Shown here: positions 1 to 8,424 of the stretch, in pieces | Numbering within the stretch: the first letter of the stretch is position 1 | Layout: each line of letters begins with the position of its first letter | Source: Acidobacteriaceae bacterium dw_441 | GTDB taxonomy: Bacteria > Acidobacteriota > Terriglobia > Terriglobales > Acidobacteriaceae | DNA: 64,000 bases | Direction of reading: 5' to 3' | NCBI GenBank assembly: GCA_018449715.1 | Contig: JAAVVA010000001.1 | Location: 682,001 to 746,000, forward strand | The notes under the pieces: model-generated | What the model was told of the DNA's origin: nothing | The model's input: the letters and a program-made list of their open reading frames with translations, nothing else | Databases searched by the model: none | Translations under genes and position numbers: made by a program

Positions 1-1214
1 GAAGCCTGCCAGACGATTCCAAAGGATGCATTTACATTGATGCGTTGTCCTTTGGCCGAACCTGTTGTTGTCTCGACGCGTGAGGCGGTTCTTGATTCAA
101 GCCCGTTGAAGTATTCGTAATAGCTGGGCAGGTTCATATTTGCGCCGGTGTACATGACGCGACCGTTGAACTTCAAACTCTTGATGTCAGAGCTCTGGAA
201 ACGGAACTCTTCGGTGGGGAAGAGTGTTCGCGTGGGTTGTAGGCGGGAGTATTGCAGATATCCATTAAGACAGGGATTCGCCGTTGGAGGAGTGGTTGCG
301 CTGTTCAGGATGGCAGGATGAGCGCCGCAGGCACTGCTTGCGGAGGATGCGGCCGGAGCCGATACATTATCAAAGCCCAGAGTCGTAGGTGTTCCACCGG
401 CCAGTTGGAGGTTCAGGCCTGTCAGTGACGAGTTGGTATCGCCTTTGTAGTGGGTAATGTGTTCTTCGTACGTGAAGGAAGTGCGTGGAAGTGGCTTCCA
501 GTCGACGCCGATGAGCCAGGTATCGGTGCTATTACGCCAGTTCTGCGCAAGCAATGCCTCAGTTCCGAAGTGAACAGAGCTTAAGGTGGGGCCCTGCATG
601 ATGTTCTGTGAATAGCCCAGGCGGATGCTGACCTTCGAGAGTGGCAGCAAAGTCAGGGTCACGTCGGTCATCCGGCGCACAGTGTTGAACAAGTGGGGCG
701 AGCTATAGATCTGCGGGAAAGTATAGCCGTTGGAGGTTACTCCCGCAGGAATGAGCGGATTGCTGAAAAGGTTGTAATCGAAGTATTGACGGTTGCGCCG
801 AAACATTCCCTGGAAGTCATAGAGTTTCCCCTTGGACAGACGCAGGGTGGTGAAGTTGTTCGGATCGCCTCCGTACCCACTGCTGGCCGTGGTCAGAGTG
901 TCGAACAGGGGAAAGTGTTTACTGTTGGTAGCCCGCATCGTGAGGAAGTGGCTGAGGATACGCGGGCCACTCTGCATATTGACCAGGGTGCTGTACATCG
1001 GCCCACTGCCCGAGATATCGGCGATGTGTCCTCCCAGATCAACCGTCTGATGGATGGCGTAGCCTCCCCTGATCATCTCTTTGGGCTCCTGCGCATCCTG
1101 TGCCGATGCGTCCGCTGATGCGAACAGGATGGAGAGACTCAGGCATCCGCCAAGGAGGAGCGCACGCGCGAGAGAATATTCCAGTGACTTATAGGCAGAA
1201 ACAATTGCTATCAT
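1..1214 (-). CDS. MtrB/PioB-like outer-membrane beta-barrel (3' end cut by window edge)
   Basis: Reading the minus strand from the ATG at 1214 gives 404 open codons to the window edge, so the C-terminus is missing. The N-terminus has a signal peptide ending near ASADASAQ. The rest has alternating, aromatic-rich stretches typical of outer-membrane barrels (for example KLYDFQGMFRRNRQYFDYN and SKVSIRLGYSQN). Its start lies 12 bases after the stop of the decaheme cytochrome gene, and the Shine-Dalgarno (GAGG) overlaps that stop, so the two are co-translated. MtrB/PioB proteins are porin sheaths around a periplasmic decaheme cytochrome and carry electrons across the outer membrane. The assignment rests mainly on the barrel character plus the adjacent cytochrome; another barrel family is possible. 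Confidence 0.75.
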   Translation of the reverse strand, partial: MIAIVSAYKSLEYSLARALLLGGCLSLSILFASADASAQDAQEPKEMIRGGYAIHQTVDLGGHIADISGSGPMYSTLVNMQSGPRILSHFLTMRATNSKHFPLFDTLTTASSGYGGDPNNFTTLRLSKGKLYDFQGMFRRNRQYFDYNLFSNPLIPAGVTSNGYTFPQIYSSPHLFNTVRRMTDVTLTLLPLSKVSIRLGYSQNIMQGPTLSSVHFGTEALLAQNWRNSTDTWLIGVDWKPLPRTSFTYEEHITHYKGDTNSSLTGLNLQLAGGTPTTLGFDNVSAPAASSASSACGAHPAILNSATTPPTANPCLNGYLQYSRLQPTRTLFPTEEFRFQSSDIKSLKFNGRVMYTGANMNLPSYYEYFNGLESRTASRVETTTGSAKGQRINVNASFGIVWQA

Positions 1215-1226
1215 CGTCTGCTAGCC

Positions 1227-2195
1227 TCACTTGAAGAAGATCGGACTCGCGTTGGAACCGTGAATCTGGGTATGGCAGTTCGTGCATGCCACATACTGCG
1301 TCGCCTGGTTATGTGCCGGTCCAGTTGGCGAAACCGCACTGGGGAAGGCATTGTTGTTGATGCCGGAGTGGCATTGCAGGCAGAGTGTATTGATGTTGGC
1401 AACGTTGAGCAGCCGTCCGTTCGGTGAGCCATGCGGTGAGTGGCAGGAGGTGCAGCCCTCCGTCTTCAGAACGGGATGTTCGAAGACGAATGGTCCGCGG
1501 GTCTCAGTGTGGCACTTAGTGCAGATTGCGTTCTGCTCCTGCGTGGTTTTGAGGGCTTTTCCCTGTGTCGTGCCGTGCGGATTATGGCAGTCGCTGCAGC
1601 TCATCAGACCTTCGTCGACCTTGTGGTGAAAGGGTTGAGAGAAAGCTGGTTTGATATCGGTATGGCAGGTGTAGCAGAGCTTCGGTTGCGATGCTTTGAG
1701 TAGGCTGGTCTCCGATGTGGAGGCGTGGACGCTATGGCAGCTGGTGCAACTTACGTTTCCTTTGGCGTGTGCGGATTGCTCGAAATCGGGATGGGCTGTG
1801 GCATGGCAGCCAAGGCAGGTCTCATCGATCTGTCGGGCGGACGCTGAGGCGAAGCGAAAGATCTTGTCGATGTCGCCGCCGCCATCGACGTGTTCTCTGC
1901 CCGGACCATGGCAACTCTCGCAGGTGGCTCCCTTGTTGCCATGCATAAGAGCAAGGCGAGAATGAGGGTTGGAAGAGAATTTCTTCGCGATCTCTCCATG
2001 GCATGCCTCACAGGTGTCGGGCCCTACATAATCTGCGGGATTATGCAGCTTTGGAGAAATCTTTTGAGCAGGAGAACTGGTCTGCTTGCTGGAAGATACC
2101 TGTTTGACCGGATCGCCGGAGGCCAGGACGCGAGTAGCGCACCAAAGTCCCGATAGCAATCCAATTACTACGATGGATAGCAGTATGCGTCTCAT
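1227..2195 (-). CDS. DmsE/MtrA-type decaheme c-type cytochrome
   Basis: The 322-residue product carries exactly ten CxxCH haem-binding motifs (CEACH, CESCH, CLGCH, CTSCH, CYTCH, CSDCH, CTKCH, CTSCH, CLQCH, CTNCH), the count and size of the DmsE/MtrA/PioA family. A signal peptide (MRRILLSIVVIGLLSGLWC...) sends it to the periplasm, where haem would be attached. I start at 2195, where GGAG sits seven bases upstream, rather than at the upstream ATG at 2219. In known systems such a cytochrome plugs an MtrB-type barrel, here the next gene downstream. The gene follows the hydrogenase large subunit and its protease, but a Crp/Fnr-like palindrome lies about 120 bases upstream of the start, so it may also have its own promoter. 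Confidence 0.9.
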   Translation of the reverse strand: MRRILLSIVVIGLLSGLWCATRVLASGDPVKQVSSSKQTSSPAQKISPKLHNPADYVGPDTCEACHGEIAKKFSSNPHSRLALMHGNKGATCESCHGPGREHVDGGGDIDKIFRFASASARQIDETCLGCHATAHPDFEQSAHAKGNVSCTSCHSVHASTSETSLLKASQPKLCYTCHTDIKPAFSQPFHHKVDEGLMSCSDCHNPHGTTQGKALKTTQEQNAICTKCHTETRGPFVFEHPVLKTEGCTSCHSPHGSPNGRLLNVANINTLCLQCHSGINNNAFPSAVSPTGPAHNQATQYVACTNCHTQIHGSNASPIFFK

Positions 2196-2314
2196 CCCAA
2201 GTCTCCAAAAGAGGTGCATTGCCCATCACTAGTCGAAGTGCTCATACAGCATGGACTTCAGATGTTTCTGGCCTGACGGTTTTCTCAGGTTAGGACTGCG
2301 CCGAACATCTGGCA

Positions 2315-2328
2315 GTGATATGGATCAC
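2315..2328. promoter_or_regulatory. Crp/Fnr-type palindrome upstream of the cytochrome gene
   Basis: GTGATATGGATCAC is a perfect GTGAT-N4-ATCAC dyad. It lies between the stop of the protease gene and the start of the decaheme cytochrome gene. The same dyad occurs upstream of the hydrogenase and of the second Crp/Fnr gene, which supports a shared regulator. Confidence 0.65.
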
Positions 2329-2333
2329 ATAAG

Positions 2334-2843
2334 TTAAGAAAGTTGTGAGAATGCTGCATGCGAAACAATTGAAGGGGAAGATGGTAGCCAGTCGGCAACC
2401 TGCGCTGCGATTGCCTCCAAAAGCGATTCCTGTGCTGCTTTGACCTTGGAGGTCAACTCGGTTCCCCAGTCTGTCGATTCTGGTTGCACGCCGAGCAGAA
2501 CAATCTCCTCTGGGGCAGCGTTCATCAAACGCATGACTCCAATGAGATCGGAGAAGCCGAGCAGGTGAACGCTCTTGGAGACCGGTAGATCGGCTATCTG
2601 AGGGCCGGAGAAACGAACGAGAGTTCCTGGAGTGGAGCCGACGTCGACTGCATCGATTGCGACGAGATGCGTGATTCCCCAAAGAGAGTGCAGCAGGTCC
2701 AATCCAAGTGTTCCACCCTCGATAAGACGTACCTCCGCGGGAAGTTCGGCATATTCACGCAGTTGCTCGATTGCCAGCATGCCAAGGGCGTCGTCGGTCC
2801 GCATGAGGTTGCCGAGTCCGAGAACTGCGATTGTGGGAGTCAT
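2334..2843 (-). CDS. hybD: [NiFe]-hydrogenase maturation protease (peptidase M52)
   Basis: The 169-residue product starts with the family motif GLGNLMRTDDALG. The three nickel-sensing positions of HybD-type proteases fall at D18, D64 (in AIDAVD) and H93 (in SVHLLGFSD). These endopeptidases clip the C-terminal extension of the large subunit once nickel is inserted. The gene lies ten bases downstream of the large-subunit gene, whose product still carries such an extension, which fits a dedicated protease. In E. coli hybC is likewise followed directly by hybD. Cytoplasmic. Confidence 0.9.
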   Translation of the reverse strand: MTPTIAVLGLGNLMRTDDALGMLAIEQLREYAELPAEVRLIEGGTLGLDLLHSLWGITHLVAIDAVDVGSTPGTLVRFSGPQIADLPVSKSVHLLGFSDLIGVMRLMNAAPEEIVLLGVQPESTDWGTELTSKVKAAQESLLEAIAAQVADWLPSSPSIVSHAAFSQLS

Positions 2844-2853
2844 GAGTTAATCC

Positions 2854-4599
2854 CTATCCCATCGATGGCGCGAAGGCGATGCCGCTATAGGGCGAAGGCC
2901 TTGCTCCATAGCGTTGTCCATTCGCGTTGACGACATGAACCGCACATGCGAGGCAGGGATCGAAGGAATGGACGGTTCTTAGAATCTCCAGCGGCCTTTC
3001 CGGATCGCTGATGGGGGTTCCCTGCAAGGCGGCTTCGTAGGCTCCACGCTGCCCCTGCGGATCGCGTGGCCCCGCGTTCCATGTGGATGGGACAACAGCT
3101 TGATAGTTGACGATTTTTTTATTCTCAATCTCGATCCAATGACCGAGGGAGCCGCGGGGAGCTTCGTGAAAACCGAAACCCTGGCACGATTTGGGCCATG
3201 TATCAGGGTTCCACTTTTCTCCATTGTGGATCCTTACATTGCCGCTGGCCATATTGTGGTGGAGCTGGTCGATCCAGCCTTCAAGCTGACCGATCATAAT
3301 ATCGGCCTCAAGGGCACGCGCAGCAATACGACCCATGGTGGAGAAAAGCGCCGTTGGTGGAAGATTCAGCTTTTGCAGCACGGCGTCGACGGACTGCTTT
3401 ACCTGTGGACGTCCAGAGGCATAGGCAACGAGGACGCGCGCGAGAGGGCCGACCTCCATGGGCTTGTTGTCATAGCGCGGAGACTTCAGCCATGAGTATT
3501 TTTCATCTGTCTTGAGATATTCGTACGGAGGCTTCGGTCCGGAGTATTTCGGCTTGGTCTCTCCCTGCGCAGGGTGCTTGCCCACCTGATCGCCGCCGGA
3601 ATACTCGTACCAGGAATGTGTGACGTATTCGGTCACGTTTGAGACGTCGACGGGATGCACCTTCGACAGATCGCGGCCCAGGATGATGCCGCGTGGGATG
3701 AAGAAGTTCGAAGCATCCTTTACCCCTGCACTTGAATAGTCCCCGTAGGCCATAAAGTTGCCAAGGCCTTCTCCATGGTTGAACCAGTCGCGATAAAAAC
3801 CGGCAATGGCGAGGACGTCAGGCAGATAGACCTGCTGTACGAAGGCCCGCGCGTTCTTGACCAACTGTCGCATCAGGTCAATGCGTTCAGGATTGACGGT
3901 CGCTCCGGGCTCATTAGCATCAATGGTGCTTGCCATTCCGCCGACCAGATAGGTCTGGGGATGTGGATTCTTGCCACCGAGCACGGCCTGGATCCGCACA
4001 AACTCTCTCTGTAGATCCAGAGCCTCAATGTAGTGGGCGACCGCCATCAGGTTGGCTTCAGGAGGAAGCTGATAGGCGGGATGCCCCCAGTCCCCGCTAC
4101 TGAACAGACTTAATTGTCCGCTGGAGACAAGGGTTTTAATACGATCCTGAATGCCTTTGAAATAAGTTGTGCTGGAAAGAGGCCACTCGGAGATGGATTG
4201 AGCTAGTTGCGAGGTCTTCGCGGGGTCAGCTTTGACCGCGGCAGTGACATCGACCCAGTCGAGCGCATGCAGGTGATAGAAGTGGATAATGTGGTCCTGT
4301 ACATTCTGCGTTGCGGCAATAATGTTGCGTACAAGACGAGCATTTTCGGGGATCTCGATGCCGAGGGCGTCCTCGACCGAACGCACGGAGGCAAGGGCAT
4401 GGACGGTGGTACAGACACCGCAGATACGTTGTGCCCAGATCCATGCTTCGCGTGGATCGCGCCCGCGAAGGATCAGCTCAATGCCACGAAACATCGTGCC
4501 TGAGCTCCATGCATCCTTTACCTGATGCCCCTCCACCTCAGCTTCAATTCGCAGGTGGCCTTCAATACGTGTCACTGGGTCGATGACTACTCGCGCCAT
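2854..4599 (-). CDS. hybC: [NiFe]-hydrogenase large subunit, HybC-like (group 1 uptake type)
   Basis: This 581-residue protein contains both cysteine pairs that bind the Ni-Fe site: RICGVC near the N-terminus (C60, C63) and DPCLAC near the C-terminus (C549, C552). His555 is followed by a 26-residue tail of the kind removed by the maturation protease. The opening segment (IDPVTRIEGHLRIE) and the HSFDPCLACAVHVV end resemble E. coli HybC closely, pointing to a membrane-associated respiratory H2-uptake enzyme. GGAAGAGG precedes the ATG. Unusually, no small-subunit gene lies upstream: the next 300 bases are a promoter region with Crp/Fnr-type sites, then a divergent regulator. The small subunit must be encoded elsewhere, perhaps beyond base 1. 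Overall function is confident; the electron acceptor is inferred. Confidence 0.95.
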   Translation of the reverse strand: MARVVIDPVTRIEGHLRIEAEVEGHQVKDAWSSGTMFRGIELILRGRDPREAWIWAQRICGVCTTVHALASVRSVEDALGIEIPENARLVRNIIAATQNVQDHIIHFYHLHALDWVDVTAAVKADPAKTSQLAQSISEWPLSSTTYFKGIQDRIKTLVSSGQLSLFSSGDWGHPAYQLPPEANLMAVAHYIEALDLQREFVRIQAVLGGKNPHPQTYLVGGMASTIDANEPGATVNPERIDLMRQLVKNARAFVQQVYLPDVLAIAGFYRDWFNHGEGLGNFMAYGDYSSAGVKDASNFFIPRGIILGRDLSKVHPVDVSNVTEYVTHSWYEYSGGDQVGKHPAQGETKPKYSGPKPPYEYLKTDEKYSWLKSPRYDNKPMEVGPLARVLVAYASGRPQVKQSVDAVLQKLNLPPTALFSTMGRIAARALEADIMIGQLEGWIDQLHHNMASGNVRIHNGEKWNPDTWPKSCQGFGFHEAPRGSLGHWIEIENKKIVNYQAVVPSTWNAGPRDPQGQRGAYEAALQGTPISDPERPLEILRTVHSFDPCLACAVHVVNANGQRYGARPSPYSGIAFAPSMG

Positions 4600-4711
4600 C
4601 TTGTCCTCTTCCTTTTAAAAACCACACAGAAGTTGCCTCTCTCCAGAAGCCGAGAGCTACGCCAATCTCAATGAGTTGAGAGGAGCATAGCTCCTTCAAA
4701 TAGAGGTGTAT

Positions 4712-4769
4712 GTGATGCACGTCACGTCCCGCGGCGCTCTCACGCGTGCACGTTGGTGACGTGCGTCAT
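4712..4769. promoter_or_regulatory. two Crp/Fnr-type sites between the hydrogenase and regulator genes
   Basis: Two related dyads, GTGATGCACGTCAC (4712-4725) and GTGACGTGCGTCAT (4756-4769), lie 44 bases apart centre to centre, close to four helical turns. They sit in the divergent region between the hydrogenase large subunit (start 4599) and the first Crp/Fnr-family gene (start 4908). Both match the TGTGA-N6-TCACA pattern read by Crp-like proteins with an RE---R recognition helix. They could serve either gene or both. Confidence 0.6.
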
Positions 4770-4907
4770 ATTCAATGCGAAAAAAAGCCCCTATACTCGC
4801 GTGCAAAAGTAAGAACGATACTGACGGTAGATCCCCAAATTTAGTCTCAAACGTTATAGTGCGCATAATTTTGAGGCTGTTATTCCGGAAGGCAGGTACA
4901 GGTACGG

Positions 4908-5967: not shown

Positions 5968-6057
5968 GTGATGTGTATCACAGTTTCATTTCGCACGGAA
6001 TGATTTCCCAGCCTGTTCGATGTGATACTTAGCACGTTCTTATGTGATGGGCATCAC
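5968..6057. promoter_or_regulatory. three Crp/Fnr-type palindromes in a divergent promoter region
   Basis: GTGATGTGTATCAC (5968-5981) and GTGATGGGCATCAC (6044-6057, extended to a 16-base TGTGAT-N4-ATCACA palindrome at 6043-6058) are perfect dyads. GTGATACTTAGCAC (6022-6035) has one mismatch. They lie between the small membrane protein gene (start 5855, minus) and the Fnr-like gene (start 6198, plus), and suggest strong and probably autogenous control. Confidence 0.7.
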
Positions 6058-6197
6058 ATTCTTCGCGGTACTCATCGGTCATGATCGAGTGGTATCGCAA
6101 ACAGATTTGATGTATCGGGCATGTAATGGAATCGGAGCGTGGTGGTCACCCTAATCTCTGAGCTTTTGGGTTGCCCGGATCAGGAGGGCTTCTGCGC

Positions 6198-6911
6198 ATG
6201 CAAAACCGCTTCACGCTTGAGTTGGGGGAGAATTGTTCCTTCTGTGCGAAGAAACGGACTGGATGGTTCTGCAATTTCTCCCCCGAAGTATTACTTGAGT
6301 ACAACGCGATTGGAACAACGATCGTTCTTCCTCCGGGCGGCGTTCTGTTTGCAGAAGGGCAGATTCCTCGTTTTGTGGCGACATTGTGCAACGGCAGGAT
6401 TAAGTTGACGCGATCGTCACGGGACGGCAGAACATTGTTGTTGAAACTTGCTAAACCTGGCGATGTTCTTGGATTGCATGCGATATTGAGGGATATTCCT
6501 TATGAAGTGACGGCGCAGGCGACCGAGCCATCACAGATTAGATGCTTTCCGCAAAAGGATTTTCTGCATTTTCTCAACCGGTATGCTGAGAGCGGCATGC
6601 ACGCTGCTGAAAGCCTGGGAAAGGAATACATCACTGCGTTGAATGAAGCGAGCCGTCTGGCACTTTCGCCGACGATCGCGGGGCGCATCGCCGACCTGTT
6701 GTTGGAACTGGCGATAGAGGACGAGGTGAACACGACGCCTCAACCCGAGATTCATATGTCCCTTAAGCACGAAGATCTTGCTTTCATGCTGGGAAGTTCT
6801 CGTGAATCTGTAACCCGAGCCCTGAATGATCTTAAACGGGATGGGATCATTGCCATTCGTGGGACAAAAATCATCCTGCTACGAAAAGATGCCTTAGAAC
6901 GTCTGTTTTGA
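6198..6911 (+). CDS. Fnr-like regulator with candidate iron-sulfur cysteines
   Basis: I start at ATG 6198, which has AGGAGGG 11 bases upstream, giving 237 residues; the longer TTG start is unlikely. The N-terminus has C13-x2-C16-x8-C25, and a fourth cysteine, C116, lies on the strand before the dimerisation helix, where E. coli Fnr has C122. That pattern suggests an oxygen-sensitive [4Fe-4S] cluster, although Fnr spacing is x2 and x5. The beta-roll (GGVLFAEGQIP, KPGDVLGLHAIL) and the winged helix (SSRESVTRALNDLKRDGII) are clear. The recognition helix keeps the CRP-type Arg-Glu pair, matching GTGAT half-sites rather than Fnr's TTGAT. Three such sites lie upstream of this gene. Probably an O2-responsive regulator of the hydrogenase and electron-conduit genes (inference). 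Confidence 0.85.
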   Translation: MQNRFTLELGENCSFCAKKRTGWFCNFSPEVLLEYNAIGTTIVLPPGGVLFAEGQIPRFVATLCNGRIKLTRSSRDGRTLLLKLAKPGDVLGLHAILRDIPYEVTAQATEPSQIRCFPQKDFLHFLNRYAESGMHAAESLGKEYITALNEASRLALSPTIAGRIADLLLELAIEDEVNTTPQPEIHMSLKHEDLAFMLGSSRESVTRALNDLKRDGIIAIRGTKIILLRKDALERLF

Positions 6912-7227: not shown

Positions 7228-8424
7228 TCAGGAGACCTTCTTGAGGAGGCCGTGGGGATCGAGTACAAACTTCTTGGCCGCCCCCTTATCGAAGTCCTTG
7301 TAACCCTGGGGAGCGTCATCGAGACTGATGACAGTTGCATTCACGATCTTTGCGATGGGAAGTCGATCGTGCAGAATCGCCTGCATCAATTGCCGGTTGT
7401 ATTTCAGTACTGGAGTTTGGCCGGTGTAGAAGCGGTGTGACTTCGCCCATCCCAGTCCGAAGCGCATGCTCAGGTTTCCGGTCTGTGCAGCCTTGTCCGT
7501 GGCGCCGGGGTCTTCCGTGACGTAGAGGCCGGGGATGCCAATGGAACCTGCGGCACGCGTAATGGTCATCAGGGAATTCAGCACCGTTGCTGGAGCCTCC
7601 GCACCATTGTGCCCATGCGATTTGGCCTCGAAACCCACGGCGTCGATGGCCGCATCGACCTCCGGCTTTCCGACGATCTGTGCGATCTGATCTTCGAGAG
7701 ATGCATCCTTGCTCAGATCGATGGGCTCGTATCCGACGGACTTGGCGTGGGCCAGCCGCTCTGCGTTCATATCGCCGATAAGCACGACAGCCGCGCCAAG
7801 AATATAGGCAGACGCCGCGGCGGCCATACCCACAGGTCCGGCCCCGGCCACATAGACGACCGAGCCGACACCTACACCTGCGTTGACCGCTCCATGAAAG
7901 CCGGTGGGGAGGATGTCCGTTAGCATGGTCAGGTCCTTGATTTTCTCCATGGCCTGAGCTTTGTCAGGGAAGGGGATCAGGTTGAAATCGGCATAGGGAA
8001 CCATCACATACTCGGCTTGACCTCCGACCCATCCGCCCATGTCGACGTATCCATAGGCTCCTCCGGCACGGCCAGGGTTAACATTCAGACACACGCCCGT
8101 CTCCTGGGCGCGACAGGTCCGGCAGCGTCCGCATGCGACGTTGAAGGGCACCGTGACCAGATCGCCCTTCTTGATGTATTCGACGTCTGAGCCCAGCTCG
8201 ATCACCTCGCCTGTGATCTCATGGCCAAGCACCATGCCTGTTGGAGCTGTGGTGCGGCCACGAACCATGTGCTGGTCAGATCCGCAGATGTTGGTCGACA
8301 CTACCTTGAGAATGACGCCGTGGTTGATCTTCTTCCCGGCTGGATTCTCGAGCTTGGGGTAATCGATAGACTGCACTTCAACGTGATTTGGTCCGAGAAA
8401 GACGACTCCGCGATTGGATGCCAT
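7228..8424 (-). CDS. fdhA: glutathione-independent formaldehyde dehydrogenase (zinc, NAD)
   Basis: The 398-residue protein is a long-chain zinc alcohol dehydrogenase. It shows the catalytic-zinc segment STNICGSDQHMVRG, GHEITGEV, the four structural-zinc cysteines in CGRCRTCRAQETGVC, and the nucleotide-binding GAGPVGMAAAASA. The VDMGGWVGGQAEYVMVPYADFN stretch and the overall length match Pseudomonas putida-type formaldehyde dehydrogenase, which oxidises formaldehyde to formate with tightly bound NAD and no glutathione. AAAGGAA precedes the ATG. It forms its own transcription unit closed by the hairpin downstream. A relation to the hydrogenase cluster is not evident; it probably detoxifies aldehydes. 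Confidence 0.9.
   Translation of the reverse strand: MASNRGVVFLGPNHVEVQSIDYPKLENPAGKKINHGVILKVVSTNICGSDQHMVRGRTTAPTGMVLGHEITGEVIELGSDVEYIKKGDLVTVPFNVACGRCRTCRAQETGVCLNVNPGRAGGAYGYVDMGGWVGGQAEYVMVPYADFNLIPFPDKAQAMEKIKDLTMLTDILPTGFHGAVNAGVGVGSVVYVAGAGPVGMAAAASAYILGAAVVLIGDMNAERLAHAKSVGYEPIDLSKDASLEDQIAQIVGKPEVDAAIDAVGFEAKSHGHNGAEAPATVLNSLMTITRAAGSIGIPGLYVTEDPGATDKAAQTGNLSMRFGLGWAKSHRFYTGQTPVLKYNRQLMQAILHDRLPIAKIVNATVISLDDAPQGYKDFDKGAAKKFVLDPHGLLKKVS

What the first reader, a model, noticed from the sequence alone, without database searches (positions are those of the whole stretch)
1..4907. Hydrogenase genes joined to an MtrAB-type electron conduit
A HybC-type hydrogenase large subunit and its protease are followed on the same strand by a decaheme cytochrome with ten CxxCH motifs and an MtrB/PioB-like barrel. 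Known: MtrA/MtrB-type pairs pass electrons across the outer membrane; HybC-type enzymes oxidise H2. Inference: this organism couples H2 oxidation to an extracellular electron acceptor or donor. Such linked gene order is unusual, and would be of wide interest in an acidobacterium.
Basis: partly seen in the sequence, partly recalled or inferred. Interest (0 to 1): 0.8.

Follow-up and report, generated by a model that had tools for sequence, protein, structure and literature searches.

The report
Hydrogen-to-outside electron export gene cluster
In a soil acidobacterium and a good part of its relatives, the genes of a hydrogen-splitting enzyme stand in one shared cluster with genes for a predicted electron wire through the outer membrane, so these bacteria would likely burn hydrogen gas by passing the electrons to something outside the cell, such as iron minerals or humus.

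The parts
2854..4599 (-). [NiFe] hydrogenase large subunit (HydL, group 1f-like), with RICGVC and DPCLACAVH nickel-site motifs
   Evidence: PF00374 2e-232; PDB best 3myr_B 8.5e-225; motifs read in the translation
2334..2843 (-). hydrogenase maturation protease (HyaD/HybD/HycI family), 10 bp after HydL
   Evidence: TIGR00072 127 bits over cut-off 47; gap
1227..2219 (-). DmsE/MtrA-type decaheme c cytochrome, ten CxxCH, likely periplasmic
   Evidence: TIGR03508 262 bits over cut-off 192; 6r2q_A 1.6e-39
1..1214 (-). N-terminal part of the MtrB-type outer-membrane barrel (754 aa in all; continues outside the window to G000:C1:680950)
4712..4725 (.). CRP-type box GTGA-N6-TCAC, 113 bp before HydL
   Evidence: conserved in the promoter alignment with L152 and L153
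2315..2328 (.). CRP-type box GTGA-N6-TCAC, 96 bp before the decaheme gene
   Evidence: conserved in the promoter alignment with L152-L155
4908..5630 (+). CRP/FNR-family regulator (Crp1), divergent from HydL; RETVTR in the recognition helix
   Evidence: PF00027, PF13545; alignment
6171..6911 (+). second CRP/FNR-family regulator (Crp2) with CxxC-x8-C at its N terminus; relatives stand divergent from conduit genes elsewhere
   Evidence: PF00027, PF13545
5968..6057 (.). two more GTGA-N6-TCAC boxes (5968-5981, 6044-6057) upstream of Crp2

Best explanation
The locus encodes the parts of a predicted electron chain from H2 to the outside of the cell: a [NiFe] hydrogenase, predicted to face the periplasm, would pass electrons through its cytochrome b to the quinone pool, an ImcH-like cytochrome would likely take them off again, and monoheme and decaheme c cytochromes would carry them through an MtrB-type barrel to an extracellular acceptor. 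Shown here: the parts, their order, their recurrence in relatives, CRP-type boxes shared by the hydrogenase and conduit promoters, and a natural fusion of the hydrogenase cytochrome b with an ImcH-like cytochrome in relatives. Inferred: the electron flow and its outward direction, control by a CRP-family protein, and the acceptor (Fe(III) or humic matter in acid soil is the likeliest). As no MtrC homologue was found, the MtrA/MtrB-type pair itself (as in PioAB or MtoAB, recalled) or an unrecognised protein would meet the acceptor.
For: Part list in 10 kb: HydL, protease, decaheme, barrel, two monoheme c, ImcH-like on one strand; HydS and cytochrome b convergent. MtrB fold. ImcH definition met: 3 TM, CX3CH, 5 CX2CH, 39% identity to a Geobacter MAG protein with CX3CH and six CX2CH. 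That survey reports ImcH only as a quinol oxidase, hence outward (PMC6295460 section 11). Linkage in 10 of 22 sampled same-family genomes, same strand, barrel downstream in each. One-strand order HydL-protease-hyp genes-decaheme-barrel-c-ImcH-like in L152-L154 (hyp identities by model in L153, by eye in the others). Three loci (L156-L158) add a 13-heme gene, with a b561 domain in L010, between barrel and ImcH-like gene. HydB-ImcH-like fusion between HydS and HydL in L013 and L016; 118 of the 120 listed (of 140) homologues carry both domains. Boxes: 5 of 84 genomic sites in 11.4 kb, Poisson 2e-6, times 84 = 1.7e-4 (motif chosen after reading these promoters); 19 of 27 decaheme promoters against 24 of 371 background and 0 of 27 for each of three control palindromes. 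A different hydrogenase lineage (about 48-52% identical) also stands beside conduit or ImcH-like genes in some genomes.
Against: No expression, biochemical or growth data. 12 of 22 genomes with this hydrogenase show no barrel within 15 kb on the same contig; in one single-contig genome (G440) they lie over 1 Mb apart, and two (G562, G471) have no barrel match. None of 15 genomes with the 54-58% hydrogenase and only 2 of 11 with the 48-52% one are linked (same calls; many are broken assemblies). Conduit units also stand without hydrogenase in the stretches read (L146). No MtrC/OmcA homologue reaches its cut-off in this 99.99%-complete genome. Pseudacidobacterium ailaaui, which appears to own locus L153, is cited for consumption of sub-atmospheric H2 (PMC6896113 passage), which suggests an aerobic use of the same enzyme. 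The box is 2.4 times more frequent than its control genome-wide (84 against 35), so a broad regulator may read it. On a HydL tree the link needs 8 changes: it is often gained or lost.
Confidence: 0.6

Rival explanations
1. Shared regulon without shared electrons: the hydrogenase feeds aerobic (even trace-gas) respiration, and the conduit serves another donor; they sit together because one CRP-family regulator switches both on in starvation or low oxygen.
For: Group 1f of A. ailaaui is cited for sub-atmospheric H2 uptake (PMC6896113 passage). 12 of 22 genomes are unlinked within 15 kb. Conduit units exist alone (L146). The box is widespread in the genome.
Against: Fusion of cytochrome b and ImcH-like cytochrome in relatives; HydL-to-ImcH order on one strand, with hyp genes inside, in L152-L154; recurrence with a second hydrogenase lineage. 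This genome also has a separate Huc-like hydrogenase, a better candidate for trace H2.
Confidence: 0.22
2. Inward wire: the MtrAB-type pair, monoheme cytochromes and membrane cytochrome take electrons from Fe(II) or reduced humics into the cell, as Mto/Pio do, and H2 is a second electron donor in one lithotrophy island.
For: No MtrC found, as in MtoAB/PioAB (comparison recalled); mtoABCD clusters of Fe(II) oxidisers (PMC6295460 passages) also hold a monoheme c, MtoD (recalled); that paper implicates CbcL/MtoC-type proteins in both directions.
Against: The same survey reports ImcH only as quinol oxidase. Acidobacterium and Acidicapsa strains are reported to reduce ferric iron (PMC8790237 passage). 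Fe(II) at acid pH is too oxidising to reduce menaquinone (established knowledge).
Confidence: 0.13
3. DmsEF-like use: the conduit feeds a soluble-acceptor reductase (DMSO, iodate, arsenate or the like) at the cell surface rather than minerals.
For: The decaheme cytochrome falls in the DmsE-named model TIGR03508.
Against: I recognised no molybdoenzyme gene by eye among the longer frames around the locus, but none was searched for.
Confidence: 0.05

Closest known systems
MtrCAB of Shewanella (6R2Q)
   Same: MtrA-like decaheme beside an MtrB-fold barrel
   Different: No MtrC found; hydrogenase genes in the same cluster; ImcH-like in place of CymA
MtoAB/PioAB Fe(II)-oxidation conduits
   Same: decaheme + barrel without MtrC, monoheme c nearby (recalled; mtoABCD named in PMC6295460 passages)
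   Different: ImcH-like membrane cytochrome (quinol oxidase type) and hydrogenase; likely outward
ImcH of Geobacter
   Same: 3 N-terminal TM, CX3CH, then CX2CH motifs; 39% identity to a Geobacter MAG protein
   Different: 5 rather than 6 CX2CH; next to mtrAB-like genes, which the 2018 survey did not find for any imcH; a 2026 study reports ImcH- or NapC-like cytochromes in 6 of 8 clusters with a decaheme cytochrome and porin, with no hydrogenase mentioned in that section (PMC13264449 section 18)
Group 1f [NiFe] hydrogenases of Acidobacteria and Deferribacter
   Same: S. bohemicum S15, whose HydL is 81% identical, is reported to hold one; in D. autotrophicus a 1f cluster adjoins multiheme cytochrome genes (PMC6896113 passage)
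   Different: That paper found no MtrA, MtrB or ImcH homologues in D. autotrophicus
Acidobacteriia mtrCAB (Group 5 of Baker et al. 2022)
   Same: MtrAB in the same class of bacteria
   Different: 'hydrogenase' occurs 0 times in the main text, and no membrane quinone oxidoreductase was seen beside those clusters (PMC8805035 passages)

Membership tests
MtrA/DmsE decaheme cytochromes | family model over its cut-off and ten CxxCH | tested here: met
   TIGR03508 262 bits, cut-off 192; ten CxxCH
MtrB barrels | MtrB fold | tested here: met
MtrB barrels | gene next to an MtrA-type cytochrome | tested here: met
   12 bp apart
MtrCAB | MtrC/OmcA surface cytochrome | tested here: not met
   TIGR03507 and PF22113 give only hits below cut-off in the whole genome
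ImcH | three N-terminal TM, CX3CH next to them, 5-9 CX2CH (definition in PMC6295460) | tested here: met
   hydropathy TM 20-38, 55-73, 107-125; CGQTCH; five CX2CH
ImcH | 31.5-49% identity to the Geobacter group | tested here: met
   39% to a Geobacter MAG protein that fits the Geobacter definition; the named G. sulfurreducens ImcH itself was not at hand
ImcH | quinol oxidation | not testable with these tools
   needs biochemistry
[NiFe] hydrogenase group 1 | both nickel-site CxxC motifs, small subunit with Tat signal, b-type cytochrome | tested here: met
   (the Tat model scores 14.8, just below its cut-off of 16.7; the RR motif is read in the sequence)
[NiFe] hydrogenase group 1f | HydDB class | not tested
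   by relation only: S. bohemicum S15 reported as 1f; one HydL match at E up to 1e-100 in what appears to be its genome, G521
standard or O2-tolerant group 1 small subunit | Cys at the second position of the proximal CxxC | tested here: not met
   DCAGNSES: Asn there; of 75 aligned rows, window included, 34 have Asn, 37 Cys, 3 Asp, 1 gap

The most novel reading that the evidence does not exclude
Acidobacteria own a dedicated H2-fuelled extracellular respiration: a self-contained, mobile module in which hydrogenase, quinol oxidase (ImcH, at times with a CbcL-like partner) and outer-membrane wire work as one unit, and in some lineages the hydrogenase cytochrome b is physically fused to the ImcH-like cytochrome, so that H2 electrons go to the outer membrane without entering the free quinone pool. 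It would make H2-driven iron and humus reduction a trait of one of the commonest soil phyla.
Probability: 0.3. Interest if true: 0.88.

Novelty: new variant of a known kind. Interest (0 to 1): 0.72.

Why it matters
Acidobacteria dominate many acid soils and peats, and their part in iron and humus reduction has been guessed from decaheme genes (PMC3669403 passages). If true it would link two soil processes that are mostly studied apart, H2 uptake and reduction of iron or humus, both of which may compete with methane production.

Tried and rejected
Early reading 'S. bohemicum is unlinked' (10-kb flanks) was wrong: longer sequence shows decaheme-barrel-c-ImcH-like on the same strand about 13 kb from HydL; a second barrel-c-ImcH-like unit there (L146) is far away. 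'Small subunit missing' was an effect of the window edge. 'MtrC lies elsewhere in the genome': TIGR03507 and PF22113 gave only hits below cut-off; the other multiheme genes read (L138, L139) are heptaheme proteins with long C-terminal parts; the CxxCH pattern listing for the whole genome was capped, so unread multiheme genes may exist. Barrel by sequence against PDB: no hit at E of 1 or less, so the fold was used. Crp2 as an FNR homologue: CxxC-x8-C is conserved in conduit-linked relatives, but the fourth Cys lies elsewhere than I recall for FNR, so oxygen sensing is not claimed. Second hydrogenase as group 1h: it is Huc-like. The linkage label on the HydL tree needs 8 changes, at least 6 forced by starred branches, shuffles 11.5 (quick method; S. 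bohemicum was labelled unlinked there and most family-sample genomes were not in it). Rows set aside before counts: a fragment match (G421) in the 22-genome count; the L008 small subunit, below the score filter. In G527, counted as linked, the HydL next to the barrel is a 73% fragment at a contig end; a longer match lies on another contig.

Full report
WHAT IS THERE. The window is G000:C1:682001-746000 of a 4.92-Mb, 99.99%-complete genome. Silvibacterium bohemicum, identified by matching contig coordinates (G401/G521), is listed as same-family, so the genome belongs to the Acidobacteriaceae. On the minus strand, in order: HydL (window 2854-4599), maturation protease (2334-2843), decaheme cytochrome (1227-2219), and a barrel whose first 404 aa are in the window. 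Beyond the window's left end I read L004 (C1:667001-687000): the barrel is 754 aa (C1:680950-683214). Then come two monoheme c cytochromes (C1:680592-681035, start uncertain, and 680230-680550) and a 473-aa membrane cytochrome (678784-680205). Convergent on the other strand lie the small subunit (676628-677833) and a b-type cytochrome (677876-678670), with a fatty-acid desaturase gene behind them. Gaps inside the minus-strand run are 10, 114, 12, overlap, 41 and 24 bp.

THE MEMBRANE CYTOCHROME IS IMCH-LIKE. It has three N-terminal TM helices, one CX3CH behind them and five CX2CH. This is the definition that a published survey gives for ImcH (3 TM, an atypical CX3CH, 5-9 CX2CH; PMC6295460 section 11). 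It is 39% identical over residues 15-459 to a Geobacter MAG protein with CX3CH plus six CX2CH. The survey reports ImcH only as a quinol oxidase, and found no mtrAB next to imcH. A 2026 paper does report ImcH- or NapC-like cytochromes in 6 of 8 clusters of one decaheme-porin group (PMC13264449 section 18), so that adjacency alone is not new.

IS THE LINK MORE THAN CHANCE. In 200 sampled same-family genomes the barrel is found in 100 (E up to 1e-10), the ImcH-like protein in 108 (E up to 1e-30) and HydL in 46 (E up to 1e-100). My count from those tables, window's genome included: of the 22 genomes with HydL over 870 bits (72-100% identity), 10 have the barrel within 15 kb on the same contig, each on the same strand and downstream of HydL (in one, G527, the neighbouring HydL is a fragment at a contig end). 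Among the other 12, one (G440, one contig) is truly unlinked, two have no barrel match, and several are on broken contigs. Of 15 genomes with HydL at 54-58%, none is linked; of 11 at 48-52%, two are (G529, G560). With one barrel gene in a 4.9-Mb genome, chance proximity within 15 kb either side is about 0.6%. Among the 80 named loci fetched by HydL, 9 of 37 with over 900 bits hold the pair within the flanks (up to 10 kb) and 0 of 43 below; many are cut short. The link needs 8 changes on a HydL tree (at least 6), so it is repeatedly gained or lost.

WHOLE CLUSTERS IN RELATIVES. In L152, L153 and L154, hydrogenase maturation genes fill the space between protease and decaheme gene: hypD, hypE, hypB and hypF in all three, and hypA in L153 and L154 (identities by NCBIfam in L153, where hypA is just below its cut-off; by eye in the other two). 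One strand runs from HydL to the ImcH-like gene. In the window the hyp genes are absent from the cluster; a hyp set, recognised by eye, lies beside the second hydrogenase (L006). In L156-L158 (the same contigs as L009, L015 and L038, by length) the order is HydS-HydL-HydB-protease-decaheme-barrel-c-13-heme protein-c-11-heme cytochrome-ImcH-like; the 13-heme protein of L010 carries PF01292 at its C-terminal end, like CbcL. Bryocella elongata has the window's order, with HydS/HydB divergent instead of convergent (L021).

FUSION. In L013 and L016 a 771-aa protein between HydS and HydL is a hydrogenase cytochrome b (PF01292) fused to an ImcH-like cytochrome (PF03264; CX3CH), and no separate HydB is seen. 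The protein search, which scored only the 7993 candidates sharing most words, found 140 homologues at E up to 1e-100; 118 of the 120 listed carry both domains, and several are named 'Ni/Fe-hydrogenase b-type cytochrome subunit' from Acidobacteria. This is the strongest sign that hydrogenase and ImcH-like cytochrome work together.

A SECOND HYDROGENASE LINEAGE. L117 and L118 place decaheme-barrel next to a HydL about 48% identical; in L117 hyp genes lie between, and 4Fe-4S and NrfD-type subunits stand beside HydL, a HybOABC-like layout (L118 was not read in that detail). L160 and L161 have conduit genes and L151, L161 and L162 ImcH-like genes beside such hydrogenases.

REGULATION. GTGA-N6-TCAC occurs three times in the 20-kb L004 (expected 0.40; 1 of 200 shuffles reaches 3), at the small-subunit, decaheme and HydL promoters, and twice more before Crp2. 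Genome-wide there are 84 sites (control 35); five lie in 11.4 kb here (Poisson 2e-6; times 84, 1.7e-4; the motif was chosen after reading these promoters). Across the loci held, 19 of 27 decaheme promoters (paired with a barrel), 18 of 35 HydS promoters and 4 of 35 HydL promoters carry it; background 24 of 371. Three control palindromes: 0, 0, 0 of 27 at decaheme, 0, 1, 0 of 35 at HydS, 1, 0, 1 of 371 in the background. The low HydL figure fits operons where HydL follows HydS. In promoter alignments TGTGA-N6-TCAC stands out from poorly conserved flanks. Crp1 and Crp2 carry RE[TS]VTR (that this reads GTGA half-sites is recalled for CRP). The GTG start of HydS listed here lies inside its box, so the true start may be the ATG 96 bp downstream.

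MECHANISM AND LIMITS. H2 oxidation, electrons to quinone by HydB, quinol oxidation by the ImcH-like protein, then monoheme c, decaheme and barrel to the outside: each step follows from the family of the part, none was measured. Direction outward is favoured by ImcH and by reports of ferric-iron reduction in Acidobacterium and Acidicapsa (PMC8790237 passage). Against exclusivity: A. ailaaui is cited for sub-atmospheric H2 uptake (PMC6896113 passage).

LITERATURE. PMC5900883 (passages) lists group 1f hydrogenases in S. bohemicum and A. capsulatum and mtrA/mtrB homologues in several acidobacteria; the passages do not join them. PMC8805035 (passages) has no 'hydrogenase' in its main text. PMC6896113 (passages) notes a group 1f cluster beside multiheme cytochromes in Deferribacter autotrophicus, but no MtrA, MtrB or ImcH. 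PMC6018796 (passages) reports group 1 hydrogenases in peat acidobacteria and holds no 'Mtr' or 'decaheme'. My searches (listings only, apart from the papers named) brought up no paper that I saw to describe a hydrogenase-MtrAB-ImcH cluster; most subscription papers and all preprints are outside that library.

Noticed in passing
G000:C1:676628-677833 (L004:9628-10833): Hydrogenase small subunit has Asn in place of the second proximal-cluster Cys (DCAGNSES); of 75 aligned rows 34 have Asn, 3 Asp, 37 Cys, 1 gap. A Cys-to-Asn case at this position is listed for N. punctiforme in PMC4070099 (passages).
   Followed up: partly
G000:C9:88985-90532 (L006): A second hydrogenase large subunit, best PDB match 7uus (E 1.1e-265; Huc of mycobacteria, recalled), with hyp-like genes nearby by eye; not group 1h as I first guessed.
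   Followed up: partly
L004:8601-9473; L007, L152, L153, L037, L030, L040: A fatty-acid desaturase gene stands within a few kb of the hydrogenase genes in the window's genome and these relatives; in L152 and L153 the box lies between it and HydS.
   Followed up: no
L138, L139: Three heptaheme proteins with long C-terminal parts that look like TPR repeats (not tested); role unknown.
   Followed up: no
window 6171-6911: Crp2 and its conduit-linked relatives keep CxxC-x8-C near the N terminus and a fourth Cys in the sensor fold: a possible iron-sulphur or redox sensor unlike the FNR spacing I recall.
   Followed up: partly
window 7228-8424: Glutathione-independent formaldehyde dehydrogenase (TIGR02819, 738 bits), beyond the regulators and apparently unrelated.
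   Followed up: no
L155:7400-12500: In S. bohemicum genes on the opposite strand, one KaiC-like by eye, lie between the hyp genes and the decaheme gene.
   Followed up: no
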